From: Oscillospiraceae bacterium
GTDB lineage: Bacteria; Bacillota; Clostridia; Oscillospirales; Oscillospiraceae
Assembly: GCA_015068135.1 (NCBI GenBank)
Contig: SVLB01000006.1
Span: 1 to 64,000 of the forward strand
Direction of reading: 5' to 3'
DNA: 64,000 nt
Each line of letters begins with the position of its first letter. Position 1 is the first letter of the stretch. The notes beneath the pieces were generated by a model, which ran no database searches, was not told where the DNA came from, and was given only the letters and a program-made list of their open reading frames with translations. Of this stretch, positions 1 to 16,883 are shown piece after piece. A program made the position numbers and the translations under genes.

Positions 1-212
1 TTGGCAGCTTTCTGCTCCCGCAGGATCTGCAGCAATGTAGGTGTATCGTTCTTCTTATTTGCACGCTCCGGTTTTTGTGCATCCTCCGGAATGTACCAAG
101 TTTTGCCGATAAGTTTTGCGTCGGCAATTCTGCCGTGGGCACAGTAATTCCGCACACTTCGTTCAGAAAGTCCCCATTTTTCAGCCACTTTTACGACAGA
201 TATATATTCCAT
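1..212 (-). CDS. HTH-domain protein, N-terminal part only (probably Fic family)
   Basis: Partial gene that starts at 212 and runs off the left edge. About 70 residues are visible. They begin MEYISVVKVAEKWGLSERSV and form a MerR/excisionase-like helix-turn-helix, followed by WYIPEDAQKPERANKK and a helix LLQILREQKAAK. In clostridial proteins this kind of N-terminus often precedes a Fic (AMPylation) domain; that is inference, since the FIC motif would lie outside the window. The ATG has a GAGAGG ribosome site and a near-perfect promoter (TTGATA-17-TATAAT, 243-271). It is divergent from the GyrA-like gene at 401. Confidence 0.75.
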   Translation of the reverse strand, partial: MEYISVVKVAEKWGLSERSVRNYCAHGRIADAKLIGKTWYIPEDAQKPERANKKNDTPTLLQILREQKAA

Positions 213-242
213 AGTTACCTCTCGACTAGATTTCTTGCCATT

Positions 243-271
243 ATTATACCACATTACCGGCAAAATATCAA
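243..271 (-). promoter_or_regulatory. Sigma-A-type promoter for the leftward HTH gene
   Basis: On the minus strand TTGATA (271-266) is separated by 17 nt from TATAAT (248-243), about 30 nt upstream of the ATG at 212. Confidence 0.75.
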
Positions 272-318
272 CATCTTTTCTGTGATGTCATTTTTGAATA
301 TTGCCGTTAGTTTAAATG

Positions 319-344
319 CATATGGGGCGATTTTGCCCCATGTG
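319..344 (+). repeat. Intergenic hairpin repeat, copy 1
   Basis: CATATGGGGC-GATTTT-GCCCCATGTG forms a 10-bp hairpin with one G-T pair, followed by GTGGGCTATTATGTTT. It is the leftmost of the related hairpins in 319-13256. It lies between divergent genes, so it does not terminate a known upstream gene; it precedes the GyrA-like gene. Any terminator function is inferred. Confidence 0.7.
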
Positions 345-400
345 GTGGGCTATTATGTTTAAAGAACAAAAAACTAACACAGAAAGCGAGTTGATATATT

Positions 401-1594
401 ATGGCTGAAGCATTGAAAATGAAAGTAGATACTGCAGGAAGCGAGACCTTCGAAAGTTATAGCCTCCCCGATGCGCGGGATGGTTTAACACCCAGACAAC
501 GCAGAATCCTTTGGGTTATGTATTTACGCAAGTTATCTAGTAGATCTGACTACGAAAAAACAATGTGGACATTTTTGGATGCAGGTGGTCAGTACGGCCC
601 AGGAGAAGAAATGAATGATTGTTGGGGAGTTGGGGAATCCAATATCATCAATGACACGATTGTACAAATGACCCAACGCTATAATGCAGTGGCCTTGATT
701 GAGGCAGGTCGCGGTAACTTTGGCGGATACGGAGAGGAACCGGCATCCCCCCGATTCACGGAAATTAGAACAAGTTCTGTTACAGAAGATACCATGCTGA
801 AATATGTGAATCAAGCGACTGTGCGGCACAAAGAGGATGCTTACATCGTGGGAGGTAAAGTTCCTTTCGTATTGCCCTCTTGTATTCCCTGGGCTGTTGT
901 TTTAGGAACGGATACGATAGCGGATGGATTTGTAAGTAAAATTCCCCCGCATAACCTAGGCGAAGTGATCGACGCAATGGTAGCAATGATTCAAGATCCC
1001 AATATGCTTCCGGAACGAGTCATGGACTATATTCAAGGGCCTGACTTCATCACCGGCGGTATTATCACAAATAAGCGCGACTTGGCTGATATGTATCGAA
1101 AAGGACGCGGGCAGATTCGGATTCGGAGAAAAGCACAGGTGAAACCTCCAGAAGGAAGAAAAAGAAAGTCCACACTGATATTTAAAGAAGCTCTTGTCAC
1201 GGTGGCCGATGATCCGAAAGCAATTACAAATTGGATCAGTACGCTTGTATGGGAAAATATACTTCCTGGTATCGCAGATTTATATTTAATGGACTACGCT
1301 GAAATTGCCGTAGAACTGAAAGCTAGTGCCGATATCCTCAAGGTATTGGAATTGCTTTATCAAAAAACAGATCTTGAGACCGTTATCGATTATCATGCAA
1401 TTCTGCTTTCCGACAATGAACCTGCACGAATGTCACTGTACAACATTCTCTCGGATCATTTGGCATTCTATCGAGATTTCCTGCAAAAGAAAAATGGCGT
1501 AGCACCAACAAATGAAGAAATGTGTCAGGAACTGCTTGCAATTAAGAAAAAGTACGCAAAACCTAGAAGAACGGAAATCATTGATCTGGTATAA
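401..1594 (+). CDS. GyrA/ParC-like type IIA topoisomerase A-subunit homologue, catalytic tyrosine missing
   Basis: 397 residues, about half a normal GyrA. It keeps recognisable breakage-reunion landmarks: LPDARDGLTPRQRRIL (GyrA: LPDVRDGLKPVHRRVL) near 22-37, DTIVQMTQRY near 85-94, GRGNFG near 103-108, the IPPHNLGEVI motif near 185-194, and GRGQIRIRRKA near 235-245. At the active site GyrA has RYTE with the DNA-linking tyrosine; here it is RFTE, with F119 (codon TTC at 755-757). The conserved HPHGDS is CWGVGES. The C-terminal DNA-wrapping domain is absent. It therefore should not cleave DNA; a DNA-binding or partner-binding role is inferred. It heads the rightward island genes and has a weak ribosome site. 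Confidence 0.85.
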   Translation: MAEALKMKVDTAGSETFESYSLPDARDGLTPRQRRILWVMYLRKLSSRSDYEKTMWTFLDAGGQYGPGEEMNDCWGVGESNIINDTIVQMTQRYNAVALIEAGRGNFGGYGEEPASPRFTEIRTSSVTEDTMLKYVNQATVRHKEDAYIVGGKVPFVLPSCIPWAVVLGTDTIADGFVSKIPPHNLGEVIDAMVAMIQDPNMLPERVMDYIQGPDFITGGIITNKRDLADMYRKGRGQIRIRRKAQVKPPEGRKRKSTLIFKEALVTVADDPKAITNWISTLVWENILPGIADLYLMDYAEIAVELKASADILKVLELLYQKTDLETVIDYHAILLSDNEPARMSLYNILSDHLAFYRDFLQKKNGVAPTNEEMCQELLAIKKKYAKPRRTEIIDLV

Positions 1595-1603
1595 TATGAA
1601 ACT

Positions 1604-1635
1604 CACCGGATGGGGCGATTTTGCCCCGTCCGGTG
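1604..1635 (+). repeat. Intergenic hairpin repeat, copy 2 (terminator-like)
   Basis: CACCGGATGGGGC-GATTTT-GCCCCGTCCGGTG, a 13-bp stem with one T-G pair, followed by GGTTATTTTTATAG. The outer stem is CCGGA/TCCGG where other copies have CCCGA/TCGGG, so both arms changed together. It sits 9 nt after the stop of the GyrA-like gene and fits an intrinsic terminator. Confidence 0.85.
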
Positions 1636-1676
1636 GGTTATTTTTATAGTGGAAACAAATTAGGAGGAGTGTCATA

Positions 1677-2501
1677 ATGGCAAATAATTATGTGTACAGC
1701 AAAAGAAATGGCGATATTCCCGAAACAATGAACCTAGTGCTTGAGAAGCTTGCGCAAATAGCACTCGAAGATGCGCATAAGACAAGACAGTCTACAGGGT
1801 TCTTGGCTATCGACAAGTTAACAACTGGGCTAGCGGATGAAGACCTGGTTGTGATTGCAAGCCGTCCGGCAATGGGTAAAACGGCATTTGCGTTAGATAT
1901 TGCCAAACATCTAGCAAAAGAAATATCCAAAACAACAGTGCTATTTTCTTTAGAAATGTCTAAAGAACAGATTGTCCGTCGCTTACAAAGAGCAAGCGGA
2001 AACGAACACAATATAGAAGGCAACCTTGTAATCTGTGATGATCCATGGCTGACGGTGAAGAAGATTCATGATATTTGTGAGAGCGTTGAAAACCTCGGTG
2101 CTATAATCATTGACTATTTTAATTTACTTGACGATCTGGCATATCACACAAATATTAAAGACCGATTTAGCCGTGCATACAATTCTAAGTCGCGGGGCCT
2201 AAAGCTTCTAGCACGGGAATTAAGCGTGCCGGTTATTTGTACGGCGCAGTTGGGTCGGCAAGTAGATTGCCGAGAAGATAATCGACCTGTTTTTTCGGAT
2301 TTAAATAATTATGGTGCTTTGCAGCAGGATGCTGATCAGATTCTTTTACTATACCGGGATTGCTATTATAACTCGGAAACGCCGCTGGGTGATATCGCTG
2401 AATGTATTGTGGCGAAGAACAGACATGGAGATTGTGGCACAGTCCGATTGCTGTGGGACCCGGAAAAAGTAACATTTTCTGATGAGGAGGTAGTAGAATG
2501 A
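1677..2501 (+). CDS. DnaB-type helicase ATPase domain, no N-terminal domain
   Basis: 274 residues with only the RecA-fold ATPase half of replicative helicase DnaB (normally about 450). Walker A is SRPAMGKT (62-69), Walker B IIIDY (143-147). The DnaB segment RPVFSDLNNYGALQQDADQI (203-222) and AKNRHGDCGTVRLLW near the end match DnaB (RPxxSDLRESGxIEQDAD; AKxRNGPxGTVxLxF). The N-terminal primase-interacting and hexamer-stabilising domain is missing. It is likely an active ATPase with an altered role; helicase activity is not shown. Excellent AGGAGGAG ribosome site. Its last codons overlap the macrodomain gene (ATGA), so the two are probably translationally coupled. A second DnaB-like domain lies at the end of the gene at 4122. 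Confidence 0.88.
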   Translation: MANNYVYSKRNGDIPETMNLVLEKLAQIALEDAHKTRQSTGFLAIDKLTTGLADEDLVVIASRPAMGKTAFALDIAKHLAKEISKTTVLFSLEMSKEQIVRRLQRASGNEHNIEGNLVICDDPWLTVKKIHDICESVENLGAIIIDYFNLLDDLAYHTNIKDRFSRAYNSKSRGLKLLARELSVPVICTAQLGRQVDCREDNRPVFSDLNNYGALQQDADQILLLYRDCYYNSETPLGDIAECIVAKNRHGDCGTVRLLWDPEKVTFSDEEVVE

Positions 2502-3064
2502 AAATATACATCATCAACAGAGGTGAAGTACAGCTGCGCTATGTAAAACTATACTTTCATGGAGAATCGAATGTCGAGTGCGTAGCTGCGGAATTTGATG
2601 AATTTCTAAGGTCAAATCCGGTGCAGTGTATTGTTTCCCCTGCCAACGCCTTTGGGTTAATGGATGGCGGATATGATCTTGCCATTACCCATTATTTTGG
2701 AGATCAGCTGCAAAAACGGGTTCAGCAGCATATTATCGACCACTATTATGGGGAACAGCCTGTGGGAACAAGCTTTATGATTGACGCGGGAAAAGAGGGT
2801 CGTAAATTGATTCATACGCCAACCATGCGAACACCGCAGCCAATCAAAGATCCGCTGGTAATCTACCAATGCATGCGTGCGACACTGATGTGTGCATACG
2901 AGAATAATCTGGATAGCCTTTTAATTCCCTTGTTTGGCGGTGGCTGCGGAGAGGTGCATCCAAAGTTAATTGCAGAAATGATGTGGAAAGCGTATAACCA
3001 AATTCATAACCCACCGAAGAAACTGGACTGGGACTATGTAGAGGAACATGAAATCTGCTTATAG
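2498..3064 (+). CDS. Macrodomain (ADP-ribose-binding) protein
   Basis: 188 residues, overlapping the DnaB-like gene by 4 nt. Macrodomain signatures: IVSPANAFGLMDGGYDLAI near 46-64, matching the family's IVNAAN...GGGGVDxAI substrate loop, and IPLFGGGCGEVHP near 143-155, matching the phosphate-binding PxxxxGxxGxP loop. Macrodomains bind or remove ADP-ribose, or bind related NAD metabolites. Pairing with a DnaB-like ATPase suggests a link to DNA-associated ADP-ribose signalling; that is inference. No ADP-ribosyltransferase is seen beside it, so a toxin-antitoxin pair of the DarTG type is not supported. Confidence 0.75.
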   Translation: MKIYIINRGEVQLRYVKLYFHGESNVECVAAEFDEFLRSNPVQCIVSPANAFGLMDGGYDLAITHYFGDQLQKRVQQHIIDHYYGEQPVGTSFMIDAGKEGRKLIHTPTMRTPQPIKDPLVIYQCMRATLMCAYENNLDSLLIPLFGGGCGEVHPKLIAEMMWKAYNQIHNPPKKLDWDYVEEHEICL

Positions 3065-3070
3065 GAAAGA

Positions 3071-3106
3071 CCCACCGGATGGGACGAAAATGCCCCTTCC
3101 AGTGGG
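3071..3106 (+). repeat. Intergenic hairpin repeat, copy 3 (degenerate)
   Basis: CCCACCGGATGGGAC-GAAAAT-GCCCCTTCCAGTGGG, a stem with three mismatches, followed by TTATTATTTAAG. It begins 7 nt after the macrodomain stop codon and is terminator-like. Confidence 0.75.
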
Positions 3107-3157
3107 TTATTATTTAAGAAATAAAATCAGCCCAATATAGAAAGAAGGTTGCCTCCC

Positions 3158-4099
3158 ATGTTGTATCTTCAAAGTTTCAAATTCCCCAACGAGCGTGAAG
3201 AAGTTAGATTTTTATACCCTGATGACAGAGATCAAGTTAGTGGACCCTTTAAGGATTTTCGAGCGCGAAGCCACAAAGGTTCGCTATATCCCTTTGGCGT
3301 TCTGGAACGTAACCGTCTTGGTCGTGTAAGTTTTGACCGAATTACTATTTTCTGCGGTGGAAATGGGAGCGGTAAAACAACTGCGCTAAATGTAATTGCG
3401 GAAAAACTAGGTCTTAGAAGGGATAGTATGTTTAACAGCGGACGTTTCTTTCAAGAATATTTAGATCTGTGTGAATTCGATGCCGATCTTGGCACAGATC
3501 GTTATGTCCGAAAGAAATTAGGAAAGGATGTTGCACTATATCTCCCAAACGACAGCAGGATCATAGTCAGTGACGATGTGTTTGCACATTCTATGAAGCA
3601 ACGAAGAATCAATGACCATATTCATGGCGGAAGAGCCGACGCAGAAAAGGATTACAACGACTTGGTCATGAGTGGAGCAAATTTGCGTTCTTTGGAAGAC
3701 TATGAACGCTGGAAAGTACGAAACGAAGCGTTGCGCAACAAGTCTGCCTTTATGCAAAAACAATTAGATTCTGAGGTGCCGGAACAATCCAATGGTGAAA
3801 CGGCCATGATTTATTTTCTCCAGAGAATGGAAAATCCGGGCCTGTATCTATTGGACGAACCTGAAAACAGTCTTTCTCTGGAGAATCAAATGAAGCTTGT
3901 GGAGTATATAGAATCCTCAGCGCATTGGTTTAACTGCCAGTTTATCATTGCAACACATTCGCCGATTTTTCTGTCAATGAAAGGTGCAAGAATTTATGAC
4001 TTTGACGAAAATCCGGTAAAGACCAAAAAATGGACAGATGTAGAGAATGTCCAAATCTTATATGAATTTTTCAAAGCCCACGAAAACGAGTTTAATTGA
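3158..4099 (+). CDS. AAA/ABC-type ATPase
   Basis: 313 residues from the ATG at 3158, preferred over an upstream in-frame TTG because GAAGG lies 9 nt before the ATG. Walker A is GGNGSGKTT (near 67-75), a signature-like SNGE lies near 213, Walker B is LYLLDEPENSLS, and the H-loop is IATHSP. These are hallmarks of ABC-type, SMC/OLD-like ATPases without a membrane part. The Toprim nuclease domain of OLD proteins is absent. Stand-alone proteins of this shape are common in defence islands and phage-inducible loci, but no partner nuclease is adjacent. Its target is unknown. The next gene starts 22 nt later. Confidence 0.82.
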   Translation: MLYLQSFKFPNEREEVRFLYPDDRDQVSGPFKDFRARSHKGSLYPFGVLERNRLGRVSFDRITIFCGGNGSGKTTALNVIAEKLGLRRDSMFNSGRFFQEYLDLCEFDADLGTDRYVRKKLGKDVALYLPNDSRIIVSDDVFAHSMKQRRINDHIHGGRADAEKDYNDLVMSGANLRSLEDYERWKVRNEALRNKSAFMQKQLDSEVPEQSNGETAMIYFLQRMENPGLYLLDEPENSLSLENQMKLVEYIESSAHWFNCQFIIATHSPIFLSMKGARIYDFDENPVKTKKWTDVENVQILYEFFKAHENEFN

Positions 4100-4121
4100 T
4101 AACAGAAACGGAGGCTCTGAT

Positions 4122-6182
4122 ATGAACAGACAGATTGCCACTTACGGACTAACAAAACAGCAATTAATGCTTTTGGAGGCGGCGTTGCCAGAAGAATACG
4201 AATTGACAACAGCAGAGTGCGTGACAGACCTGATCGTTACCAATGCAGTTTGTAGTATCATAGATACATCTTCGTTGGATGACGAAGGCAGGCTCGTCTT
4301 GATTGCTTATGCCTTGGATGTAGGCGATCAGATGGACGGGACAATGGTTTGGTTAGGAGGCGTGGAGCCGCCTGCTCTATCATCCTTTGTTTGCTGTGAC
4401 AGCTTTTTGGACTTGCTGACAGAGCTGGATAGTATCCTGACTCGTGCGCAAGTCCGTTACGATACCATGCAGATGTACGGCAGCGAATATGCGTATCTTC
4501 CTAAACACGCCATTGAGGAGAGTATAGAGGCAGATATCAATACTGTGTTACATCGCAAGTACGGTACAAATCCGGATCCGTTGATTGTGAAACGTATGCG
4601 CCAGGAGCTAACAGCGCTGCGGGAAGTGGATGCATCGCAAAATGCGTTGCAGGATCTGGCTGCGGTCTATGAGTTATCACGCTGGCTGAAAGCGCAGAAC
4701 ATTCCATTCTTCGTTGAGCATGTAACAGCCAGTGGGCTGATCCCCTATCTTTTGGATATCACCCATACCAATCCATTGCCGCCCCATACATTCTGTCCGA
4801 AATGCAAACAACTGCATTGGCATCCTACTTACAAAGATGGTTTTGATATTCCGGCAGCGGTTTGCCCCGACTGTGGTACAGACCTCATCCGAGACGGCCA
4901 TGGTTTGGTCTGGCAGGAATTCTGCTGCGGTCCGATTCCTACATATGGTTTTTGGCTTCCGGCTTCAACGCAGGAGCAAATTAGCCGCTGGGTGGAAAAC
5001 CATTGGCGGAAACAGGATTGGGAAACAGCGTGGGGCGCTGTACAGCGAGAGAATAGTCGTATGGATGCCGGTCCGTGTTACTTTATTTTTGCGTTGGATG
5101 AGGCGGAAATCAACCCTGATTTTCATCACCGAACTGTAACGGCAGAACAAACTGGCGAACTGATCCGATTAGTGGGTTCCAAGTGGCAAAACTACGACGG
5201 CATTGGGATGCCCTATCCTAAGAATGCGGCGGAGGCGCTTGCGGTCTATGCGCTTATGAAGGACAGCGGGACGTGGAATGGCTACGCTGAAAAACTGCTC
5301 CATTGTGGACTTGGGGTATCTGATTTGATCTGCTGTCGGGAAGATATCTTTTATTATCTTCGTGACCACGGATTTGTAGAAAAAGATGCTATTCGGGGTA
5401 TGCATAGTGTCCGCAAAGGAAAAGGATTTCCTGTCATTACGGAAGAGATGCGAAATGCTCGCGATAAGTGGGTTTTGAAGCAGTGTGAAACCATCGATTA
5501 TCTGTCATCTAAGGCGGCAGATTTGGAAAGATTGTTATTTCAGATCCGTGGAGATTTTGCACCTCCAATTAATTATTACGATGGCTTAGATACCGGTATT
5601 GATGCACTGGATAACAGTATTTTAGGCATGGAATCCGGAGAAGTGATTCTTGTTGGAGGCCGACCTGCTATGGGAAAGACCAGCTTTGCAAGAGGCGTGG
5701 AAAGACATTTGACCGAGCAAGGAAAGCGGGTCTTCTATTTTGACTTCGTGCACGACGAAAAAGAGGCACATAAAGACTTTGCGGACTTTGAACGGGAACT
5801 GCGGGAAAGCGAGGCTGATTTTGCTGTCTTCGATCATTTTCAGTTTTTATCGGATTATGACGAAACGGATGAAACAGCGGAGGCATTTTTCAAAAGGATT
5901 AAGTCGTTGGCAACAGAGTTACAAATCCCCATCATGGTGCTGCTTCACTTGAACAAGAATCCGGAAACGCGCCCGGATCCCAGTCCCGTCACCACGGACA
6001 TCCCTCATGCGGAAACAATTCTGCCTTTTGTGGACACTGTGCTGCTTCTATATCGTCGGGCGTACTACGATCCCCTTGTGGACCGTAATACTGCTCGTTG
6101 CATCATCGACAAAGCTGCGCGCTGTCATTACAAGATCCTCTCGTTGCGGTGGGATGATGAGAATTACAGATTTACAGATTAA
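4122..6182 (+). CDS. Chimera: degenerate PolC-derived region fused to a DnaB-type ATPase
   Basis: 686 residues from the ATG at 4122 (GGAGG 7 nt upstream); in-frame extension to 4047 would overlap the ATPase gene. Residues about 125-270 follow the palm/zinc region of Gram-positive DNA polymerase PolC: LHRKYGTNPDPLIVKRMRQE, LIPYLLDITHTNPLPPH (PolC ITEVNPLPPHY), Cys pairs C225/C228 and C248/C251, GFDIP, and RDGHG (PolC KDGHDIPFETF). Residues 383-465 follow the PolC segment GNAQELI...GCRDDIMVYL...MESVRKGKG. The catalytic PDIDLNF stretch is absent, so no polymerase activity is expected. Residues 490-686 are a DnaB-like ATPase: GGRPAMGKTSF (512-522), FAVFDHFQFL, LLLYRRAYYD. The first 120 residues are unrecognised. 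Function unknown. Confidence 0.8.
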   Translation: MNRQIATYGLTKQQLMLLEAALPEEYELTTAECVTDLIVTNAVCSIIDTSSLDDEGRLVLIAYALDVGDQMDGTMVWLGGVEPPALSSFVCCDSFLDLLTELDSILTRAQVRYDTMQMYGSEYAYLPKHAIEESIEADINTVLHRKYGTNPDPLIVKRMRQELTALREVDASQNALQDLAAVYELSRWLKAQNIPFFVEHVTASGLIPYLLDITHTNPLPPHTFCPKCKQLHWHPTYKDGFDIPAAVCPDCGTDLIRDGHGLVWQEFCCGPIPTYGFWLPASTQEQISRWVENHWRKQDWETAWGAVQRENSRMDAGPCYFIFALDEAEINPDFHHRTVTAEQTGELIRLVGSKWQNYDGIGMPYPKNAAEALAVYALMKDSGTWNGYAEKLLHCGLGVSDLICCREDIFYYLRDHGFVEKDAIRGMHSVRKGKGFPVITEEMRNARDKWVLKQCETIDYLSSKAADLERLLFQIRGDFAPPINYYDGLDTGIDALDNSILGMESGEVILVGGRPAMGKTSFARGVERHLTEQGKRVFYFDFVHDEKEAHKDFADFERELRESEADFAVFDHFQFLSDYDETDETAEAFFKRIKSLATELQIPIMVLLHLNKNPETRPDPSPVTTDIPHAETILPFVDTVLLLYRRAYYDPLVDRNTARCIIDKAARCHYKILSLRWDDENYRFTD

Positions 6183-6194
6183 GGAGAAAGTATT

Positions 6195-6596
6195 ATGGAA
6201 GAAATGATTCATGAGTTGCTCAAACGGTGGGAACGAGCGGCCTGTAATGGTATGGGAAACGACTTTCCGAAAGAGGAGTATTTCCTGGAACTGACAAAAG
6301 AAACATTTAAACTACTCTCGTGCTTTGATGCTGCCCATACGATCACCAATCCCGTTGCTCGAATTTTGGTTCTCATGCAAGAATATGCGGTGTATTGTTT
6401 CATTTCTGATAAAGCGCATAGCATTGAGATGTGGTCCATCGTCTCAGGTATCCTGTATGACTTTTTGAATGGGTTTGAACAATGCAGTTCTATTTATCCC
6501 AAGTTAAGACTTGGTGATGAGTACAATGTAGATTTCTTTGATTTTGATACCAACAAACTATCTGACATGAAGATGAACGACGAACCACCGTTCTAA
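6195..6596 (+). CDS. Unknown protein, 133 residues
   Basis: Starts 12 nt after the PolC/DnaB chimera with a strong AAGGAGA site, so it is probably in the same transcript. Mostly helical and acidic, with LVLMQEYAVYCFISDKA in the middle and a C-terminal tail FFDFDTNKLSDMKMNDEPPF. I recognise no domain. The tail, with scattered acidic and aromatic residues, vaguely resembles binding tails of single-stranded DNA-binding proteins, but no OB fold is visible. No signal peptide or membrane segment. Confidence 0.7.
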   Translation: MEEMIHELLKRWERAACNGMGNDFPKEEYFLELTKETFKLLSCFDAAHTITNPVARILVLMQEYAVYCFISDKAHSIEMWSIVSGILYDFLNGFEQCSSIYPKLRLGDEYNVDFFDFDTNKLSDMKMNDEPPF

Positions 6597-6710
6597 AATA
6601 TAATTCTTGCAGACTTCTTGAGATGAGGGACCTAATACTATTTCGGTTGCCAATCATACCCGAAATATTGGACACTTAAAGTGTTATCCTGTATCCTGGG
6701 GTGATGTAAT

Positions 6711-9563
6711 ATGGATTATTTATCCGCATTAAATGAAAAACAATTGGAAGCCGTAATGGCAACGGAGGGGTATCTCCGGGTGATTGCCGGCGCAGGCAGT
6801 GGGAAAACTAAGCTGCTGGTAAGCCGGTATGCTTATCTTGTAAAGGAGTACGGCATTAATTCTGCCAACATCCTCTGCGTGACCTTCACCAACAAGGCTG
6901 CCGGAGAGATGAAGCGCCGTATCCGCAGCCTAATCGGCCAGGAGTACGACACGTCGTTAATCTGTACATACCACGGGTTCTGCGTTCGGGTGCTCCGGGA
7001 GGATATTGAGAAGATTTTCTATCCCAAGGAGTTCCAAATCATTGACAATGCCCAGCAAAAGGCAATCTTAGGGGACATCTATCAGAAATTCGAGCTGAAG
7101 CTGGACCATGCCAGCTTTGAGAAGATCATCAAGCAGATCGCATTCTTCAAAGCTAGGCATCGCGACTATGTGGCAAAGATGTGCTGCACCGATCATTGTC
7201 AGATCGTTCCAGAAATCGCAACCATGGACGATCAGATCATTGAAGAATTCCTGCAAAAGCAGAAGCAGATCTATGCTATGGACTTCCATGATCTGTTGTA
7301 CTTCGTGCTGGACATTTTTAACCGCTGTCCGGAGGTTTTGGAGAAATGGCAGGACCGGCTGAACTATATCCAGGTGGACGAGTTTCAGGACAGCTCCAAC
7401 ACGGAGATGGAGCTGGTGGACAGGCTGTCGGAAAAGCACAAGAATCTGATGATCGTAGGCGACCCGGATCAGAATATCTACGAATGGCGTGGCTCTGATG
7501 TGAAGTTGCTGGTGGATTTTGATAAAACCCACATTCCTACACAAACAGTCATTTTGAATCAAAACTACCGCTCCACACCGCAAATTCTTCGCTGTGCAAA
7601 CACGCTGATTGAAAAGAATGTGTTCCGGCTGAAAAAGGACTTGTTTACTAAAAGCGGTGACGGTGTGCAGGTATACCATTACCACGAGAAAAACGAGTAC
7701 GCAGAGGCAGACCGGATTATTGCCAATATCCATCAGATCCGCAAAGAGACCGGCTGTAATTATGCAGATTTTGCGGTTTTGTACCGTTCCGGTTTCCTCT
7801 CCCGGGTCATCGAAAAGAAGTTCACAGAGAACGGCGTTCCCTACGAGATTTTCGGCGGTGTGAAATTCTATCAGCGTATGGAGATCCAAGATGTTATGGC
7901 ATATTTGCGGCTGGTGGCTTTTGATGACGACATTTCCTTTAAACGGATTGTAAACAAGCCTCGCCGGAAATTTGGCAGGATCAAGCTCCAGAGGCTTCTG
8001 GCACTGCAGAAAGATGGTGTATCTCTATTCCAAACTCTGCAGGACAATTTGGACGACCCCACCTTTAAGGGAAGCGGTGCAAAAGAGTTTGCTGCTGTTA
8101 TTAACGCAGTGCGGCGGCTGCATCAAGCCATTCCCCTATCCGAGTGTGTAGAACGCATCTGCACAGACAGTGGATACGAAAAATACATCCGGGAGCTGGG
8201 CGACATGGAACGGTTTGAAAACCTGTCGGAATTCAAGCGAATCGCTTCGGAATATGAGAACAACTTTGGAGAACAAGTATCGCTGAAGGAGTTTATCAAT
8301 CAGATTTCCTTGCAATCGGAGGATGACAGCGAGGAAGCCTGTGATATGGTGAAGCTAATGACCATCCATGCGGCAAAGGGCTTGGAGTTCCCTTACGTAT
8401 TTATCATAGGCTTTTCAGAAGGTATCTTTCCCTCTGCCAAAACCATCGAGGAGCGGAAAAAGATGGGTTTGGAAGAGGAACGCAGGCTGTGCTATGTGGC
8501 GATCACCAGGGCAGAAAAAAGGCTGTTCTTGTTGGACAGTGAAGGATATACCCAAAACGGCAAACAAAAGCTCCCCTCCCGATTCCTGAAGGAGATCGGC
8601 GAGGAGAACTATATCCGTGTGGGTACTATCTCCAAGGAACTGCAGTATAATGCTGACCGTTATGCAGCCCAACTGTACGATGAGCCAGTAGTCACGCCAC
8701 CTAAGACCGCTGGAGCAAGAGTGACCCATCCGGCATTTGGTGAAGGCGAGATTTTGGGTTTTGGTCGAAATAATAACAGCTACCGGGTGAAATTTGATAA
8801 GCTGGCAAGCGAGCGGGAGATTTCCGTTGATTTCTTTAACAAGCCCCGGACATTACCTCAAATACCAGCACCTGCTCCGGAGAAACCTGCAGAAATACCG
8901 CGGCCGATAGAAGAAAAAGTAGAGACACCCGCGGAACAACTGCCCCACCCGGTGGAAGAAAAATCGCAGAAAGAGAAATCTGCCAATAATCCTTTGTATG
9001 GTTATGAGCAAGTAGATGCATTTAAGTTACAAACCAAGGAGTCCAGGCAATCCTCATCAGAAAAGAAAGAACCTGTGAACGAGCCGCAACAGCAGCCGAA
9101 CTTGGAAGATTACGATAATCTCTGGAAACGGGATGATGTGCCGAAAATCGGCTGGGTCTGCACCGGTGTTACAGATTTGGGTGAGCCTGTGGGCGTGTGT
9201 GAAATGTGCGGTCATCAGATCATTCGCTATGTCCACCATATGTATCACCCAAATTTCGGCAGTTTGGGGGTAGGCTGTATTTGCGCCGGCAAAATGGAGG
9301 GCAACATTGAACAGGCGAAGAAGCGGGAGCAGGATTTCAAGAGCAAAGAATCCCGGAAGGAAAACTTTAAGAACCGGCAATGGAAAACCTCTAAGAATTC
9401 CAACAGTTACTTAAAGATCAAGGATCACCTAGTAGTGTTGTATCATAACAAGAAATACGATACCTGGAAATATTCCTTGGACAATGTTTTCTGCCCGGAG
9501 ATTTACCCCACCCGGGAAGAAGCTATGGATGCGGCCTTTGAAGCTTTGGAAAAACTCCGATAA
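6711..9563 (+). CDS. UvrD/PcrA-type superfamily 1 helicase with Cys/His-rich C-terminal extension
   Basis: 950 residues. SF1A motifs: Walker A IAGAGSGKTKLL (near 24-35), motif Ia TFTNKAAGEM, Walker B VDEFQDSSNTE, motif III GDPDQNIYEWRG, motif IV NYRSTPQIL, motif V MTIHAAKGLEFPYVFI, motif VI YVAITRAEKRLFL. These predict a 3'-5' ATP-dependent DNA helicase. After a PcrA-like tail (HPAFGEGEILGF) comes a Pro/Glu-rich linker (about 725-800). A final domain carries C830-x2-C833, H835, HH842-843, H846 and C856-x-C858, probably metal-binding. Typical UvrD is about 720-750 residues, so the last 200 are an addition. Ribosome site GGGGTGATG. It follows the small unknown gene after 114 nt. Confidence 0.92.
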   Translation: MDYLSALNEKQLEAVMATEGYLRVIAGAGSGKTKLLVSRYAYLVKEYGINSANILCVTFTNKAAGEMKRRIRSLIGQEYDTSLICTYHGFCVRVLREDIEKIFYPKEFQIIDNAQQKAILGDIYQKFELKLDHASFEKIIKQIAFFKARHRDYVAKMCCTDHCQIVPEIATMDDQIIEEFLQKQKQIYAMDFHDLLYFVLDIFNRCPEVLEKWQDRLNYIQVDEFQDSSNTEMELVDRLSEKHKNLMIVGDPDQNIYEWRGSDVKLLVDFDKTHIPTQTVILNQNYRSTPQILRCANTLIEKNVFRLKKDLFTKSGDGVQVYHYHEKNEYAEADRIIANIHQIRKETGCNYADFAVLYRSGFLSRVIEKKFTENGVPYEIFGGVKFYQRMEIQDVMAYLRLVAFDDDISFKRIVNKPRRKFGRIKLQRLLALQKDGVSLFQTLQDNLDDPTFKGSGAKEFAAVINAVRRLHQAIPLSECVERICTDSGYEKYIRELGDMERFENLSEFKRIASEYENNFGEQVSLKEFINQISLQSEDDSEEACDMVKLMTIHAAKGLEFPYVFIIGFSEGIFPSAKTIEERKKMGLEEERRLCYVAITRAEKRLFLLDSEGYTQNGKQKLPSRFLKEIGEENYIRVGTISKELQYNADRYAAQLYDEPVVTPPKTAGARVTHPAFGEGEILGFGRNNNSYRVKFDKLASEREISVDFFNKPRTLPQIPAPAPEKPAEIPRPIEEKVETPAEQLPHPVEEKSQKEKSANNPLYGYEQVDAFKLQTKESRQSSSEKKEPVNEPQQQPNLEDYDNLWKRDDVPKIGWVCTGVTDLGEPVGVCEMCGHQIIRYVHHMYHPNFGSLGVGCICAGKMEGNIEQAKKREQDFKSKESRKENFKNRQWKTSKNSNSYLKIKDHLVVLYHNKKYDTWKYSLDNVFCPEIYPTREEAMDAAFEALEKLR

Positions 9564-9567
9564 CGAA

Positions 9568-9607: not shown

Positions 9608-9621
9608 ATCCTTAAAGCAGG

Positions 9622-9640: not shown

Positions 9641-9654
9641 CAGAAAAGATTTGT

Positions 9655-10081: not shown

Positions 10082-10092
10082 TCAATCAACAA

Positions 10093-10124
10093 CACCCGAT
10101 GGGGCGAAAATGCCCCGTCGGGTG
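10093..10124 (+). repeat. Intergenic hairpin repeat, copy 5 (terminator-like)
   Basis: CACCCGATGGGGC-GAAAAT-GCCCCGTCGGGTG, 13-bp stem with one T-G pair, followed by GTGTTCCTTTTATG. It lies between convergent genes (9710 rightward, 10158 leftward), so a terminator role for the 9710 gene fits. Confidence 0.88.
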
Positions 10125-10157
10125 GTGTTCCTTTTATGTATTTTGCGTTGTATGCTA

Positions 10158-10667: not shown

Positions 10668-10704
10668 ATTGAATACCTCCTTTTCTTATGTCCTTAGACT
10701 ATCA

Positions 10705-10736
10705 CACCCGATGGGGCGAAAATGCCCCGTCGGGTG
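10705..10736 (+). repeat. Intergenic hairpin repeat, copy 6 (in a divergent gap)
   Basis: CACCCGATGGGGC-GAAAAT-GCCCCGTCGGGTG, identical in stem and loop to copy 5. It lies between the divergent starts at 10667 and 10792, so no upstream gene reads into it from the left. It therefore belongs to the leader or promoter region of the Spo0A-like gene rather than to a gene end. Confidence 0.88.
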
Positions 10737-10751
10737 GTGTATCTTTATGGC

Positions 10752-10770: not shown

Positions 10771-10791
10771 CGCCAGAAAGGAGAGATACAT

Positions 10792-11565
10792 ATGAAAAAG
10801 CAAGTGTTGATCGCGGATGCAGATGAGCAGTTTCGTAATGAATTGGTAAAAGCTTTTGACGGCAACGAAGAATTTGAAGTAGTAGGAGTTGCGGTAGATG
10901 GCGAGGAGACTCAGAAAATGCTTCGAACAAAACGAGCAGACTATTTAGTAATGGATACGCTTATGCCTAAAATTGACGGATTGACCATTTTGGAGTATTT
11001 ACGCCACATGTGGCACCGTCCTAAAGTACTGGTAACATCTGAGTTTATCAGTAAATATGTGGCGGTAACAGCGATGCGTATGGGTGCGCAACAACTGCTA
11101 TATAAGCCCTGTGATGTTGATTTGATTATTAGGAACTTGCAGAGAATGGACAGGGGTGAAGCTGGCTGTCCCGTGGTTTTCCTTTGGAATGGTAAGCAAA
11201 ATTTAGAAACACTGGTGACGAGTATTCTTCATGAAATTGGTGTTCCTGCCAGCGTTAAAGGCTACTATTACTTGCGTGAGGCAATTATGATTGCTGCTAA
11301 TGATATGGATGTACTCAATGCTATGAACAATGTGCTGTATGCGGAAGTGGCAAACAGACTCCAGACTACAACAAAGAAGGTGGAGAGGGCAATCCGCGGT
11401 GCAATAGAAATTGCATGGGATCGAGGTGATTTGGATACTTTGCAACGTTTCTTTGGTTATACTGTTTCCAATACGAAAGGAAAACCAACCAACACGGAGT
11501 TTATTTCCCTCATTGCCGATCAAATCCGACTCTGGATGAAAGCAAATCCAGAGCAGTTAAAGTAA
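10792..11565 (+). CDS. Spo0A-like response regulator (receiver plus Spo0A C-terminal domain)
   Basis: 257 residues from the ATG at 10792 (AAAGGAGAG upstream). The receiver (1-119) keeps phospho-acceptor D55 (YLVMDTLMPKIDG), T82 and K105 (LYKP). The acidic pair DD of Spo0A is ADAD here, so one of the two residues is changed. Residues 142-250 match the Spo0A DNA-binding domain closely: SILHEIGVPASVKGYYYLRE, LYAEVANRLQTTTKKVERAI, IEIAWDRGDLDTL, FGYTVSNTKGKPTNTEFI. Spo0A is the master sporulation regulator; the island context and the neighbouring receiver-less relative suggest this is an accessory paralogue, but a genome search is needed to exclude that it is the only spo0A. Confidence 0.85.
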   Translation: MKKQVLIADADEQFRNELVKAFDGNEEFEVVGVAVDGEETQKMLRTKRADYLVMDTLMPKIDGLTILEYLRHMWHRPKVLVTSEFISKYVAVTAMRMGAQQLLYKPCDVDLIIRNLQRMDRGEAGCPVVFLWNGKQNLETLVTSILHEIGVPASVKGYYYLREAIMIAANDMDVLNAMNNVLYAEVANRLQTTTKKVERAIRGAIEIAWDRGDLDTLQRFFGYTVSNTKGKPTNTEFISLIADQIRLWMKANPEQLK

Positions 11566-11571
11566 CTGACA

Positions 11572-11603
11572 CACCCGATGGGGCGAAATTACCCCATCGG
11601 GTG
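11572..11603 (+). repeat. Intergenic hairpin repeat, copy 7
   Basis: CACCCGATGGGG-CGAAATTA-CCCCATCGGGTG, a perfect 12-bp stem; the usual T-G pair is a T-A pair here. It starts 6 nt after the stop codon of the Spo0A-like gene. Confidence 0.85.
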
Positions 11604-11619
11604 GTGTATCCTTATGGTA

Positions 11620-11637
11620 GGAAGTGAAAAACATTTC
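11620..11637 (+). repeat. Second leader hairpin, copy C
   Basis: GAAGTG-AAAAA-CATTTC, directly upstream of CCAGAAAGGAG, the ribosome site of the short ORF at 11658. Confidence 0.65.
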
Positions 11638-11657
11638 ATCCAGAAAGGAGAAAACAT

Positions 11658-11723
11658 GTGAAATATAAGGTTTTGTTTGCAAATGAAGATAGATTGTTTA
11701 CATTTCTCAAATATATGATATGA
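11658..11723 (+). pseudogene. 21-codon remnant of a receiver domain (or leader peptide)
   Basis: GTG start with a good AAAGGAG ribosome site, then KYKVLFANEDRLFTFLKYMI and TGA. This lines up with the first 21 residues of the Spo0A-like regulator (KKQVLIADADEQFRNELVKAF). The rest of the receiver is gone; the tandem-domain gene begins 35 nt later. Either a decayed receiver start or a short leader ORF now used to couple translation. Confidence 0.6.
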
Positions 11724-11758
11724 TAAAAATAAAGATTTTATCCTGGCAGGAGAAAGAT

Positions 11759-12526
11759 ATGAAAGCAAAGAGAGAAAGAATTACAAACTGGGTAATTTCG
11801 AAAGCAGTTCATGATATTGGTATTCCTGCTAATATCACAGGTTACTACTATATGATCGAAGCAGTGAAAATTGCGGTGGATAATGAAACTGCCGTATCCG
11901 GTATAACAAATAACATTTATGCGACTGTGGCAGAACGGTTTTGTACCACCGCAAGGCGTGTCAGTGATTCGATTGCCCGTGCAATTGCCATTGGCTGGGA
12001 ACGCGCCGAATTGTATACCTTGGATAGCTATTTTGGGCATGATGCCTATAACGCTATCGCAATGCCTGCCAGTGAGGAATGTATACGTATTTTGGCAGAG
12101 CGTGTCCGTCTGACCTGCGAGAAGACTGATGTGGAAACAGTGTTTTCAAAGCATGCAATAGCAAGTAGTAACGTAAAGAATCAGGATCTGGCAACACGAG
12201 TATTAAATGAGTTGGCCGTTCCTGCCCATTTGAAAGGTTTTCACTATTTGGCAGATGCAATTGCCCTTGCTATAGATGATATAGATATAGTTTTCTCTTA
12301 CTCGTTAAGCAAGGTTCTGTATCAGATCATTGCAGATCGATATAATACAACTCCCGGTCGGGTTGAATATGCGATTCGATATGCTATTGAAGCCTGCTGG
12401 GACTTGGGCGATCTTGACGCTTTGAAGAGTTGGTTTGAATACACAGTGAGTCCATGGAAAGGCAAACCTTCTAACGGTGAGTTCATTGCTATGATTGCGG
12501 ATACGATCCGACGGAGGCTTGATTGA
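11759..12526 (+). CDS. Tandem Spo0A-type DNA-binding domains, no receiver
   Basis: 255 residues from the ATG at 11759 (CAGGAGA 6 nt upstream); an in-frame start at 11720 is less likely because its ATG overlaps the receiver remnant and has no ribosome site. Two Spo0A C-terminal domains lie in a row. Domain 1 (about 10-120): AVHDIGIPANITGYYYMIEA, FCTTARRVSDSIARAIAIGW. Domain 2 (about 143-255): VLNELAVPAHLKGFHYLADA, YNTTPGRVEYAIRYAIEACW, EYTVSPWKGKPSNGEFIAMI. Domain 2 keeps the recognition-helix pattern RVExAIRxAIE; domain 1 has lost several of these positions. Spo0A normally dimerises on its 0A box after phosphorylation, so a fused pair may act as a phosphorylation-independent regulator. That role is inferred. 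Confidence 0.82.
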   Translation: MKAKRERITNWVISKAVHDIGIPANITGYYYMIEAVKIAVDNETAVSGITNNIYATVAERFCTTARRVSDSIARAIAIGWERAELYTLDSYFGHDAYNAIAMPASEECIRILAERVRLTCEKTDVETVFSKHAIASSNVKNQDLATRVLNELAVPAHLKGFHYLADAIALAIDDIDIVFSYSLSKVLYQIIADRYNTTPGRVEYAIRYAIEACWDLGDLDALKSWFEYTVSPWKGKPSNGEFIAMIADTIRRRLD

Positions 12527-12541
12527 TGTTAGATTCTACAA

Positions 12542-12578
12542 ACACCCGATGGGGCAGAAATGCCACATCTGATGGTGT
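12542..12578 (+). repeat. Intergenic hairpin repeat, copy 8 (degenerate)
   Basis: ACACCCGATGGGGC-AGAAAT-GCCACATCTGATGGTGT with three mismatches, 15 nt after the stop of the tandem-domain gene. A decayed second-hairpin segment (GCAGGAAGTAACC) follows at about 12588. Confidence 0.75.
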
Positions 12579-13189: not shown

Positions 13190-13220
13190 TCTCCAATTTA
13201 GAGCAAACAATAGTTACAAT

Positions 13221-13256
13221 AACACCCGATGGGGCAGAAATGCCACATCGGGTGTT
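13221..13256 (+). repeat. Intergenic hairpin repeat, copy 9
   Basis: AACACCCGATG pairs perfectly with CATCGGGTGTT (11 bp), with an inner GGC/GCC and an AGAAAT loop. Outer pairs differ from the other copies but remain complementary. It lies between the Sel1 and WYL genes. Confidence 0.85.
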
Positions 13257-13301
13257 GTAATATGGTGTCAAACATGATACACTAAACATGAGGTGATTGA
13301 A

Positions 13302-14342
13302 ATGGCACAAACTGCACCGGCAAAGAAAATGCTCATTATGAACATCCTGGATATCCTGAAGCGATACACAGACGAGGAACATAAGCTGAGTCAAAAGCAG
13401 ATCATGGATATTCTCTGGTCTGACTATGATATGGCTGCTGATCGCAAAACCGTTGCCCGGAATCTGTCAAACCTGATGGCGGCCGGTTACCCCATTGAAT
13501 GCAGGGATGATGTGGCACGCACCTACATTAACAAACAGGGCAAGAAAGAAACCAGCTATATTCTCTCTGACTTCTACCTGGAGCGAGACTTTACAGATGC
13601 CGAGCTGCGGCTGCTGATCGATAGCTTGCTGTTCTCCAAGCACATCCCCTATAGCCAGTGCAAAGAGCTTGTGGAAAAGTTGGAGGGCTTGAGTAACCGA
13701 TACTTCAAGTCCAGAGTGCGGTTTATCTCCACCATGGAGGAAACGAAGCCCAAGAATCCTCAGTTGTTTTACACCATTGAGATCATAGACGAAGCGATTG
13801 CCGCCGGCAAGCAGGTTGCCTTTACCTACAACGAGTACGGCACCGACAAAAAGCTGCACCCCAAGCGTGACCGGGAATACATCGTCAATCCCTATCAGAT
13901 GGCAGCTACCAACGGTCGGTATTACCTGATCGGCAATTATGATAAATACAACAACCTTGCCAATTACCGCATGGACCGGATCACTAACATCCGTCTGCTG
14001 GATACACCGATAAAGCCCAAGGAACAAGTGGAAGGTGGAAAGAACTTTTCGCTTCCCAAGCATATGGCAGAGCATCTGTATATGTTCAGCGGAGAAAGTG
14101 TTCCCGTGACCTTCCGGATGAACAAGGATATTTTAAACGATGTGATTGATTGGTTTGGATCGAATATTATCTTCTCTGATGAAACTGAAGGTGAGGTAAC
14201 TGCACGTGTTACCGTGAATAAGAGAGCGATGCGCTATTGGGCTCGACAGTACTGTGGTACCGTCAAACTCTTATCTCCTCCCGACTTGGTCGAAACAGTC
14301 AAATCCGACCTGCAATGGGCTTTGGAACAGTATGAGGTATGA
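13302..14342 (+). CDS. WYL-domain transcription regulator
   Basis: 346 residues from the ATG at 13302; GAGGTGATT lies just upstream, and an in-frame GTG at 13293 would fall inside that site. N-terminal winged helix-turn-helix (about 10-75): LSQKQIMDILWSDY, DRKTVARNLSNLMAAGYPIE. WYL domain (about 150-245) with VAFTYNEYG and NPYQMAATNGRYYLIGNYDK, and a C-terminal WCX part (about 250-345). WYL regulators sense nucleic acids or small ligands and often control phage-defence or DNA-damage genes. It may repress genes of this island; no operator was identified. The next gene begins 2 nt after its stop. Confidence 0.9.
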   Translation: MAQTAPAKKMLIMNILDILKRYTDEEHKLSQKQIMDILWSDYDMAADRKTVARNLSNLMAAGYPIECRDDVARTYINKQGKKETSYILSDFYLERDFTDAELRLLIDSLLFSKHIPYSQCKELVEKLEGLSNRYFKSRVRFISTMEETKPKNPQLFYTIEIIDEAIAAGKQVAFTYNEYGTDKKLHPKRDREYIVNPYQMAATNGRYYLIGNYDKYNNLANYRMDRITNIRLLDTPIKPKEQVEGGKNFSLPKHMAEHLYMFSGESVPVTFRMNKDILNDVIDWFGSNIIFSDETEGEVTARVTVNKRAMRYWARQYCGTVKLLSPPDLVETVKSDLQWALEQYEV

Positions 14343-15695: not shown

Positions 15696-16883
15696 ATGCT
15701 CCATATACTGGAAGAAATTTTGAGCAACAGCAGTTCTGGAATCAAGAATAATGAAAGCACTTTTTTGTCTGTCATTGGCAGAAGCTATGATGAAGACTTG
15801 ATTTCCCGAATAGTTGCATATTGCCTTGCAAAGGACACATCCCTTATTAAAAAGTTGATTGAACGCTATGTTCACAAACATTTGAATGACCAAGCACTTA
15901 TTGATATTTCATCGATCAAAGATGTATTGGTTAGCCCGGAAAAGGCGATGGGCTTAGGTCGAGCTGATATTTTTGTGAGTCTAACAGATGCAAATAATCA
16001 AATGATTACCCTCACAATCGAAAATAAAATATATAGCTATGAGCACATGACCGGAGACCAATATCAGACACAGGTATACTATGATTGGGTAACACAACAA
16101 CCCATGTATGCAGATGCAATTAATATTTTCTACTACTTGAGGCCGGATTATAATTACTCTGTTGCGCAATGTGCGGCTTTTGAGAATCTGTCTTATATTG
16201 ATGTGCTTGGAATGCTTAGTGCTTGCGATGATGTCATTATTCGAGATTTTGCAACCCATATTAATTATGCACTGAGAGGTGATACTATGACTTTCGACCC
16301 TGTAGAAAAACTTTTGCTGAACAATTACAAAGCCTTTGAAGAAAAGCGGGCTGAGGCTACAAAGAAGGTAAAAGCATACCAAGACATGCTTATACAGAAA
16401 ATCGTTGATAGATTAGATCTGGTAATCGTTGATTGGCGAAAACTGCAACTAGAAGGTAAACCGGATTTTCTCTGTGAGAAAGAGCATTACGGTGCTGGTA
16501 TAGGCTCTTATCGGCTTTACAAAGAAAACTGGTATAAAGAAAATGAGCACTATTTTTATGTGGAAATAAAGTTTGAGTTCGGCTGTATGGATCAGATATC
16601 CTTTCAATGCACCTTGCGTGATGACGAAAAAGGAAAGCATGATCATAGCGTTCCCAAGTTCCTTTATAACAATCCCGATATCAAAATTGCAGAAATAGAC
16701 GGAAAGTATCGTGTGATAGAAAAGCAACCTTTTTTTGTCGAGGACTGGGGTTCGCCTGCTTGGGAAACACAGTTTGTTGAGGCGGCAGTACAGTATTTGA
16801 AGTCGTATATGGTGCGTATGGATCAGGTGTTTGCAGAATATCAGAATTTCAAAACAACTGAAATGCAAAAAAACAACACTTAG
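15696..16883 (+). CDS. PD-(D/E)XK-type nuclease-like protein
   Basis: 395 residues. Near 89-125 it shows the layout of a PD-(D/E)XK core: GRADIFVSL (acidic residue), then ITLTIENKIYSYEH (E-x-K), then QYQTQVYYDW. This is the pattern of the PDDEXK_4 group, where a GExRxDI motif is followed by IENKI and QLxxY. The C-terminal part (from about 235) has mixed alpha/beta content and no recognised domain. A restriction-like or defence nuclease is likely; specificity is unknown. The ribosome site is weak. Followed 13 nt later by the gene at 16897, probably co-transcribed. Confidence 0.72.
   Translation: MLHILEEILSNSSSGIKNNESTFLSVIGRSYDEDLISRIVAYCLAKDTSLIKKLIERYVHKHLNDQALIDISSIKDVLVSPEKAMGLGRADIFVSLTDANNQMITLTIENKIYSYEHMTGDQYQTQVYYDWVTQQPMYADAINIFYYLRPDYNYSVAQCAAFENLSYIDVLGMLSACDDVIIRDFATHINYALRGDTMTFDPVEKLLLNNYKAFEEKRAEATKKVKAYQDMLIQKIVDRLDLVIVDWRKLQLEGKPDFLCEKEHYGAGIGSYRLYKENWYKENEHYFYVEIKFEFGCMDQISFQCTLRDDEKGKHDHSVPKFLYNNPDIKIAEIDGKYRVIEKQPFFVEDWGSPAWETQFVEAAVQYLKSYMVRMDQVFAEYQNFKTTEMQKNNT

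What the first reader, a model, noticed from the sequence alone, without database searches (positions are those of the whole stretch)
401..9563. Candidate undescribed system built from repurposed replication proteins
Within 9 kb there are a GyrA-like protein with no catalytic Tyr, a DnaB ATPase with no N-terminal domain, a macrodomain protein coupled to it, a PolC remnant fused to a second DnaB ATPase, an AAA ATPase and a UvrD-like helicase with an added metal-binding tail. ATPase motifs are intact while the chemistry of DNA cleavage and synthesis is lost. Selection seems to have kept binding and motor functions. Two hypotheses: a fork- or clamp-sensing defence device, or the replication/segregation module of a now-integrated element. 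WYL regulator and PD-(D/E)XK nuclease nearby lean toward defence.
Basis: partly seen in the sequence, partly recalled or inferred. Interest (0 to 1): 0.88.

Follow-up and report, generated by a model that had tools for sequence, protein, structure and literature searches.

The report
Dead gyrase and polymerase copies island
A stretch of foreign-looking DNA in a bacterium carries copies of two essential DNA-handling machines, gyrase and the main DNA polymerase, that lack their catalytic residues yet are kept by selection beside DNA motor proteins, and they likely act as baits or sensors in a predicted anti-virus island.

Summary
In a low-GC island (window 1-17.7 kb) the GyrA-like protein has Tyr->Phe and lacks HPHGD, C-gate and wrapping domain; a PolC remnant without the catalytic Asp pair is fused to a DnaB ATPase; beside them lie a DnaB ATPase, a macrodomain, an AAA ATPase and a PcrA-like helicase. 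The genes recur, but as modules: L022 keeps five of six in order (PolC unfused, DnaB split), divergent from a Fic gene and beside Gabija; G052 keeps GyrA-lite, L023 keeps PolC and a truncated UvrD, both with the WYL gene. PolC paralogues without PDID lie beside WYL relatives in two further genomes; a tree needs at least two changes of catalytic state. dN/dS is 0.12-0.18, so these are not debris. Between window and L022 the GyrA-lite core (48-70% DNA identity) and PolC (39-83%) diverge, while Fic start, DnaB and macro stay at 82-96% and UvrD at 78-93%. Some synteny breaks lie at a hairpin repeated nine times. Best reading (0.4): a WYL-linked, probably defensive island using replisome cores without catalytic residues as baits or sensors. 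Function is inferred; four literature searches found nothing like it.

The parts
3..263 (-). start of an HTH_17 + Fic protein, cut by the contig end; the full-length relative in L022 has HPFQDGNGRVGR and an SNHIEG motif of the auto-inhibitory type (recalled)
401..1594 (+). GyrA-lite, 397 aa: DNA gate, tower and coil stem of GyrA; Tyr->Phe, HPHGD lost, C-gate and CTD missing
1677..2501 (+). DnaB RecA-type ATPase domain alone, 274 aa, Walker motifs and SLEM (catalytic Glu) kept
2498..3064 (+). macrodomain protein, 188 aa, start overlaps the stop of the DnaB gene
3149..4099 (+). ABC/SMC-type AAA ATPase (AAA_15/AAA_21), 316 aa; an LRR-type gene (by eye) is at this place in L022
4122..6182 (+). 686-aa fusion: alpha/beta N-domain (1-122), PolC palm/fingers remnant without PDID (124-485), DnaB ATPase without the catalytic-Glu motif (from about 482)
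6195..6596 (+). 133-aa orphan protein, no Pfam or PHROG match
6711..9563 (+). PcrA/UvrD-type helicase with about 250-aa tail carrying a CxxC
10789..12526 (+). two Spo0A_C proteins (10789-11565 with receiver; 11720-12526 with two Spo0A_C stretches)
13293..14342 (+). WYL regulator, present in every related locus compared here (split in L023)
15696..16883 (+). PD-(D/E)XK protein (PDDEXK_4; weak PADLOC PDC-S26)
316..345 (+). hairpin repeat copy 1, approximate ends
1598..1640 (+). hairpin repeat copy 2, between GyrA-lite and DnaB
3066..3111 (+). hairpin repeat copy 3, between macro and AAA; the gene after it differs in L022
9565..9608 (+). hairpin repeat copy 4, after UvrD
10088..10131 (+). hairpin repeat copy 5
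10704..10738 (+). hairpin repeat copy 6, before a Spo0A-like gene
11567..11606 (+). hairpin repeat copy 7
12540..12575 (+). hairpin repeat copy 8
13219..13258 (+). hairpin repeat copy 9, just upstream of WYL; also there in L022, L023, G052

Best explanation
A WYL-linked genomic island carries cores of GyrA and PolC that lack the catalytic residues, next to proteins of DNA motor families, and these cores likely serve as baits or sensors for factors that attack or take over the host replication machinery, predicted to trigger partner effectors. Shown: the catalytic residues are gone, the proteins are under purifying selection, the genes recur as modules in related bacteria, and the GyrA and PolC parts differ between two syntenic loci far more than their neighbours. 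Inferred: a phage or rival-element protein, or an abnormal DNA structure, that normally engages the gyrase DNA gate or the polymerase core binds the copy instead; the DnaB-type, AAA and UvrD motors and the Fic or PD-(D/E)XK proteins would act on DNA or on gyrase once that happens; the WYL protein would control expression, perhaps by sensing single-stranded nucleic acid as some WYL proteins do.
For: Loss of chemistry: HPHGD in 0 of 34 GyrA-lite rows aligned and the Arg-Tyr pair broken in 30 of 34; PDID lost in 9 of 9 PolC remnants aligned but kept in 36 of 36 further PolC homologues P0205-P0240 and in 2 of 2 host PolC. Selection: dN/dS 0.12-0.15 for GyrA-lite in three pairs, 0.18 for PolC L022-L023; two further PolC pairs were saturated. 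Recurrence: the tree needs 3 changes of catalytic state, 2 forced by starred branches; the G391 copy groups with PolC of its own host family, 98/94. WYL link: GyrA-lite in 2 of 400 family genomes, both with this WYL within 13 kb, while WYL itself is in 13 of 400; L022 and L023 also carry it. Variability: between window and L022, GyrA-lite core 48-70% and PolC 39-83% DNA identity, against 82-93% in the Fic start and leader, 85-96% in DnaB and macro, 78-93% in UvrD. The GyrA N-arm (its GyrB contact is recalled) and the PolC part beyond about residue 1299 are missing or changed while the DNA-handling cores stay, which fits bait or sensor better than poison. Defence company: GajA-GajB pair and Fic in L022. 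WYL regulators sit with defence systems (PMC9122601, passages); ssDNA triggers PafBC (PMC11804915, title and abstract start); Fic proteins AMPylate GyrB or topo IV (PMC7479194 and PMC13327609, abstract starts; PMC10886550, passages).
Against: No function was tested and no binding partner is known. PADLOC gives no match for GyrA-lite and only weak ones for PolC-DnaB, AAA and PD-(D/E)XK. The six genes are not obligatory partners. Four of 34 GyrA-lite rows keep Arg-Tyr. The mosaic has raised dS as well as dN, so it shows allele exchange, not positive selection, and rests on one pair of loci. WYL is interrupted in G391 and G011 and split in L023, and DnaB is split in L022, so some copies may be decaying. 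Branches of G145, G391 and P0204 are long and their places unsure. Only 4 of 13 WYL genomes show a dead replisome paralogue near WYL, and flanks were cut at contig ends for some. Loss of the N-arm does not prove that GyrB is not bound.
Confidence: 0.4

Rival explanations
1. Dominant-negative replication brake: when WYL is induced by DNA damage or infection, the dead GyrA and PolC cores and the N-domain-less DnaB ATPase join or block real forks and stop replication of host or invader.
For: Altered copies of three fork proteins in one island; a WYL activator responds to ssDNA (PMC11804915, title and abstract start); the Fic gene beside it belongs to a family of which some members halt replication through gyrase or topo IV (PMC7479194, abstract start; PMC10886550, passages).
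Against: A normal GyrA N-arm, the C-gate and the PolC part beyond about residue 1299 are missing, so subunit poisoning is not the obvious design; a poison should not need allele exchange.
Confidence: 0.25
2. Replication, segregation or copy-control module of an integrative element: the proteins bind the element's own DNA and recruit host machines.
For: Tyrosine integrases lie beside island relatives in L023, G307 and G145; an 85% identical integrase elsewhere in L022's genome sits by genes that look relaxase-like by eye; a tRNA-Met flanks L023.
Against: Catalytic residues of polymerase and topoisomerase are gone; no Rep or relaxase among the 19 island proteins scanned; GyrA-lite plus WYL alone persists in G052; no close relative seen in the phage, plasmid and viral searches made.
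Confidence: 0.15
3. Target protection against gyrase or polymerase poisons (antibiotics, toxins): the copies titrate the poison or shield the DNA gate.
For: The retained regions are classical drug and toxin target cores (recalled); proteins that protect gyrase are reviewed in PMC10886550 (passages).
Against: HPHGD and its surroundings are replaced; UvrD, macro and Fic have no place in this reading.
Confidence: 0.1
4. Decaying fragments of replication genes in a rearranging island, without function.
For: Several genes are split or truncated in relatives.
Against: dN/dS 0.04-0.18 in all nine unsaturated pairs and no stops in the compared copies; the C-gate-less form is shared by the 21 family rows.
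Confidence: 0.05

Closest known systems
DNA gyrase / topoisomerase IV subunit A
   Same: same fold, winged-helix DNA gate, tower and coil stem
   Different: no catalytic Tyr, no HPHGD, no C-gate, no CTD, N-arm gone or changed
PolC-type DNA polymerase III
   Different: no catalytic Asp pair; exonuclease, PHP, OB and tail absent; other N-domain; fused to a DnaB ATPase
BrxR/CapW-type WYL regulators of defence islands
   Same: WYL gene with variable, partly defensive cargo (BrxR from passages of PMC9122601; CapW recalled)
   Different: this WYL protein matched no NCBIfam model and in PADLOC CRISPR-associated WYL models plus a weak Cas3c match; DNA targets unknown
Gabija (GajA-GajB)
   Same: UvrD-type helicase and an ABC-type ATPase in one island; a GajA-GajB pair lies next door in L022
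   Different: the window AAA has no OLD-TOPRIM match and is not next to the UvrD gene
Fic modules acting on gyrase
   Same: Fic gene with full catalytic motif divergent from GyrA-lite in L022
   Different: HTH-Fic with an internal motif of the inhibitory type; a separate antitoxin was not searched for; target unknown

Membership tests
DNA gyrase / topo IV subunit A | catalytic Arg-Tyr pair | tested here: not met
   Arg-Phe in the window; broken in 30 of 34 rows
DNA gyrase / topo IV subunit A | C-gate and C-terminal wrapping domain | tested here: not met
   absent; NCBIfam TIGR01063 205 bits against cut-off 877
PolC polymerase | catalytic Asp pair PDID | tested here: not met
   lost in 9 of 9 remnants, kept in 36 of 36 further homologues
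replicative DnaB helicase | N-terminal domain plus RecA domain | tested here: not met
   only DnaB_C in both window proteins; TIGR00665 below its cut-off in both
Gabija | GajA with OLD-like TOPRIM next to GajB | tested here: not met
   window AAA has no PF20469 match; L022 has a separate pair
WYL-linked defence island | WYL regulator with variable cargo of defence type | tested here: met
   WYL in one island with GajA-GajB and Fic (L022), PDDEXK_4 (window, G171)
WYL-linked defence island | WYL binds the island promoter and phage protection is measurable | not testable with these tools
   needs bench work
integrative element replication module | Rep, relaxase or integrase in the same unit | tested here: inconclusive
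   integrases beside relatives; none among the 19 window proteins scanned, but the left end is a contig end; nearest own-genome relatives of the L023 integrase lie on other contigs
integron-type cassette array | IntI integrase and attC sites | tested here: inconclusive
   hairpin repeats at some module borders; IntI was not searched for by its own model
Fic AMPylase | HPFx[D/E]GNGRxxR motif | tested here: met
   HPFQDGNGRVGR in L022; the window copy is cut off before it

The most novel reading that the evidence does not exclude
Bacterial immunity by replisome mimicry: WYL-linked mobile islands repeatedly capture PolC and GyrA, strip their catalysis, keep the DNA-handling core as an interchangeable bait, and couple it to conserved motors and a Fic or nuclease effector, a bacterial parallel to the integrated decoys of plant immune receptors.
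Probability: 0.25. Interest if true: 0.92.

Novelty: categorically new. Interest (0 to 1): 0.74.

Why it matters
Copies of gyrase and of the main replicative polymerase without catalytic residues, kept by selection in one island, match no system model in PADLOC beyond weak ATPase hits, and four paper searches returned none that describes them. If they are baits, replication proteins would join the list of guarded cellular hubs; if they are brakes, they would be new tools to stop replication forks. Either way the variable GyrA and PolC modules give a handle on what attacks those proteins in these bacteria.

Tried and rejected
Considered and set aside. (a) Known phage, plasmid or viral module: tblastn of GyrA-lite matched 143 phage and 169 plasmid records, all under 60% identity; the 20 rows listed each time are 30-35% identical and, where annotated, are mostly gyrA. 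PolC-DnaB matched 37 plasmid records, none covering 80%; it was not run against phages, only P0204 and the macrodomain were (best 41% to Gifsy-1). The viral-contig scan with the PolC family matched 58 stretches, none a relative. (b) The N-domain (1-125) as a module shared with other proteins: 58 hits among candidates of about 377-1200 aa; 57 were already in the list and P0241 has a DnaB_C domain. No PDB sequence match. (c) Hairpin as a wider repeat: in G000, 7 island places but also 2 others match at 0-1 mismatch (the 2 others do not continue as the same hairpin by eye). 20 of 400 family genomes match the relaxed pattern against 11 (my count of the rows) that match its backwards control, so outside the island it is not clearly above chance. 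Two viral contigs matched and were not looked into, nor were most single matches. A hairpin with this core stands upstream of WYL in 6 of 15 loci, by eye. They may be ordinary two-way terminators; I claim no site-specific recombination. (d) Rfam, gathering thresholds: no family at the hairpins. (e) G391-type PolC in 320 family genomes: none, but G391 was not in that draw, so this says nothing. (f) Order-wide GyrA search: threshold too lax, 289 of 325 genomes passed. Of the matches listed, only G000 and G052 score as GyrA-lite; G589 and G506 have short open frames (428, 463 aa) and were not checked. (g) In one search the rows hostDnaB and hostGyrA were read on the wrong strand and are disregarded; GyrA was redone, host DnaB was not. 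One search's Spo0A next to GyrA-lite in G052 was not shown to be the host gene.

Rows chosen or dropped: A5 holds 33 of the 120 GyrA-like proteins listed (613 found), chosen by hand for closeness and full length; A4 holds 42 PolC-family proteins chosen. Of the 120 listed, 67 have HPHGD and 53 do not; some of the 53 look like other GyrA variants or fragments. One search uses BLAST blocks of 90 bases or more and assumes independent ends. One search used 31 sequences picked by hand.
Full report
OBSERVATION. The window is the left 64 kb of contig C30 of a 2.4 Mb, 79-contig genome, 82.6% complete. In 2-kb steps, bases 1 to 18,000 have 42-47% GC and the rest 49-56%. The six genes of the finding are at the stated places and match the stated families.

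GYRA-LITE. Aligned with the host's own GyrA, the 397-aa protein keeps the DNA gate, tower and both helices of the coil stem. It lacks about 95 aa of C-gate between those helices, the C-terminal domain and a normal N-arm; HPHGD is replaced and the catalytic Tyr is Phe. The model (pLDDT 81.6, pTM 0.84) superposes on GyrA/ParC with TM about 0.82. In the 34 rows aligned, HPHGD is in 0, Phe replaces Tyr in 23, and the Arg-Tyr pair is broken in 30; P0028, P0046, P0049 and P0053 keep it. All 67 of the 120 listed proteins that have HPHGD also have RYTE.

RELATED LOCI. A scan of genome contigs (84,980 species genomes) with the PolC family gave two loci, both MAGs named Oscillospiraceae from goat cecum and roe deer rectum. 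L022 has Fic(-), GyrA-lite, DnaB (split), macro, an LRR-type gene (by eye), PolC without DnaB, UvrD, two Spo0A-like genes and WYL, with GajA-GajB beyond Fic. L023 has a tRNA-Met, PolC, a truncated UvrD run into a Spo0A-like end, a split WYL and a tyrosine integrase. In 400 family genomes GyrA-lite (E <= 1e-52) occurs in the own genome and in G052 only; in G052 it is followed directly by WYL.

WYL ISLANDS. WYL relatives (E <= 1e-70) occur in 13 of 400 family genomes, mostly in stretches of lower GC with varied cargo: integrases (G307, G145), AAA-M41 (G391; similar AAA in G228, G019, G011 by eye), AAA with AAA_lid_6 (G303, G307, G385), PDDEXK_4 (G171), and PolC paralogues without PDID in G145 and G391. 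In G391 the Asp pair and the third Asp are all Glu. With the window and G052, 4 of the 13 genomes have a dead replisome paralogue by this WYL; some flanks end at contig ends.

RECURRENCE. A tree of 31 PolC sequences needs 3 changes of catalytic state, at least 2 on starred branches; the program adds that three changes may be one gain and two losses. G391 groups with PolC of its own host family (98/94). G145, G391 and P0204 have long branches, and the program warns that the join of G145 with the window family may be false.

SELECTION AND MOSAIC. dN/dS: GyrA-lite 0.12-0.15, PolC 0.18 (L022-L023), macro 0.06, UvrD 0.04, WYL 0.05-0.08; two PolC pairs saturated. Along window against L022, DNA identity is 82-93% from the Fic start to about base 450, falls to 48-70% in GyrA-lite from about 450 to 1400, and is 85-96% through the GyrA-lite end, DnaB and macro; PolC is 39-83%, UvrD 78-93%. 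So the GyrA-lite core and PolC are exchanged pieces between conserved ones. dS rises with dN, so this is recombination rather than proven positive selection. Against G052, GyrA-lite is evenly 63-81%.

HAIRPIN. A 30-45 nt hairpin (core ATGGGGC..GCCCCAT or GT, outer stem variable) occurs nine times, mostly at gene borders. At 0-1 mismatch the core pattern has 7 places in the island and 2 elsewhere in the genome. Synteny-block ends fall within 10 nt of a hairpin in 6 of 30 distinct cases where 3.0% of the island is covered (P 0.00025; 0.0035 at 30 nt); 24 of 30 do not. G052 joins GyrA-lite to WYL at the hairpin, and L022 joins a Spo0A-like gene to WYL there. A two-way terminator that doubles as a recombination substrate would explain it. 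In other family genomes the relaxed pattern is not clearly above its control (20 against 11 of 400).

MECHANISM. Catalytic residues are removed while DNA-handling cores are kept; a normal GyrA N-arm and most of the rest of PolC are absent; the cores differ between loci while motors and macro hardly do; the company is partly defensive. This fits bait or sensor better than poison, replication module or debris. What binds the baits, what the effector is (Fic, PD-(D/E)XK and UvrD are candidates) and what WYL senses are inferred. Literature seen: passages of PMC9122601 and PMC10886550; abstract starts of PMC11804915 and PMC10693628, PMC7479194 and PMC13327609. Searches returned no paper on dead GyrA or PolC paralogues by title and abstract start; most subscription papers and all bioRxiv preprints are outside that library.

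VERDICT. A real, selected and recurrent assembly of unknown function. It is a set of exchangeable modules around a WYL gene, not a fixed six-gene system.

Noticed in passing
window 316-13258, nine places: Hairpin with conserved core and variable outer stem, mostly at gene borders; a leader after it is also repeated (9565, 10698, 11565).
   Followed up: partly
window 15195-15291: About 97 bases resemble the 3' end of the WYL gene of G052, so a WYL 3' end seems to lie beyond the inserted LRR gene.
   Followed up: no
L069/L070 (G052), GyrA-lite: The GyrA-lite frame is open about 108 aa upstream of the usual start; P0004 shares about 67 aa of it.
   Followed up: no
L023:11448-11843: UvrD start runs in frame into the end of a Spo0A-like gene, a clean deletion joint.
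   Followed up: no
G391 and G011 WYL genes: Each has a single in-frame TGA; decay or assembly error not resolved.
   Followed up: no
L092 (G303) and L095 (G171): By eye, 855/835-aa and 506/454-aa proteins that look like the Pnkp-Hen1 RNA repair pair lie close to the WYL gene (not scanned against families).
   Followed up: no
window left end; L022 right end; G052 C17 end: All three GyrA-lite islands lie at or near contig ends, as if flanked by repeats that break assembly.
   Followed up: no
L065, L066 (viral contigs): One exact hairpin-core match each, not looked into.
   Followed up: no
window 36240-36329 (-): Glycine riboswitch (Rfam RF00504), outside the island.
   Followed up: no
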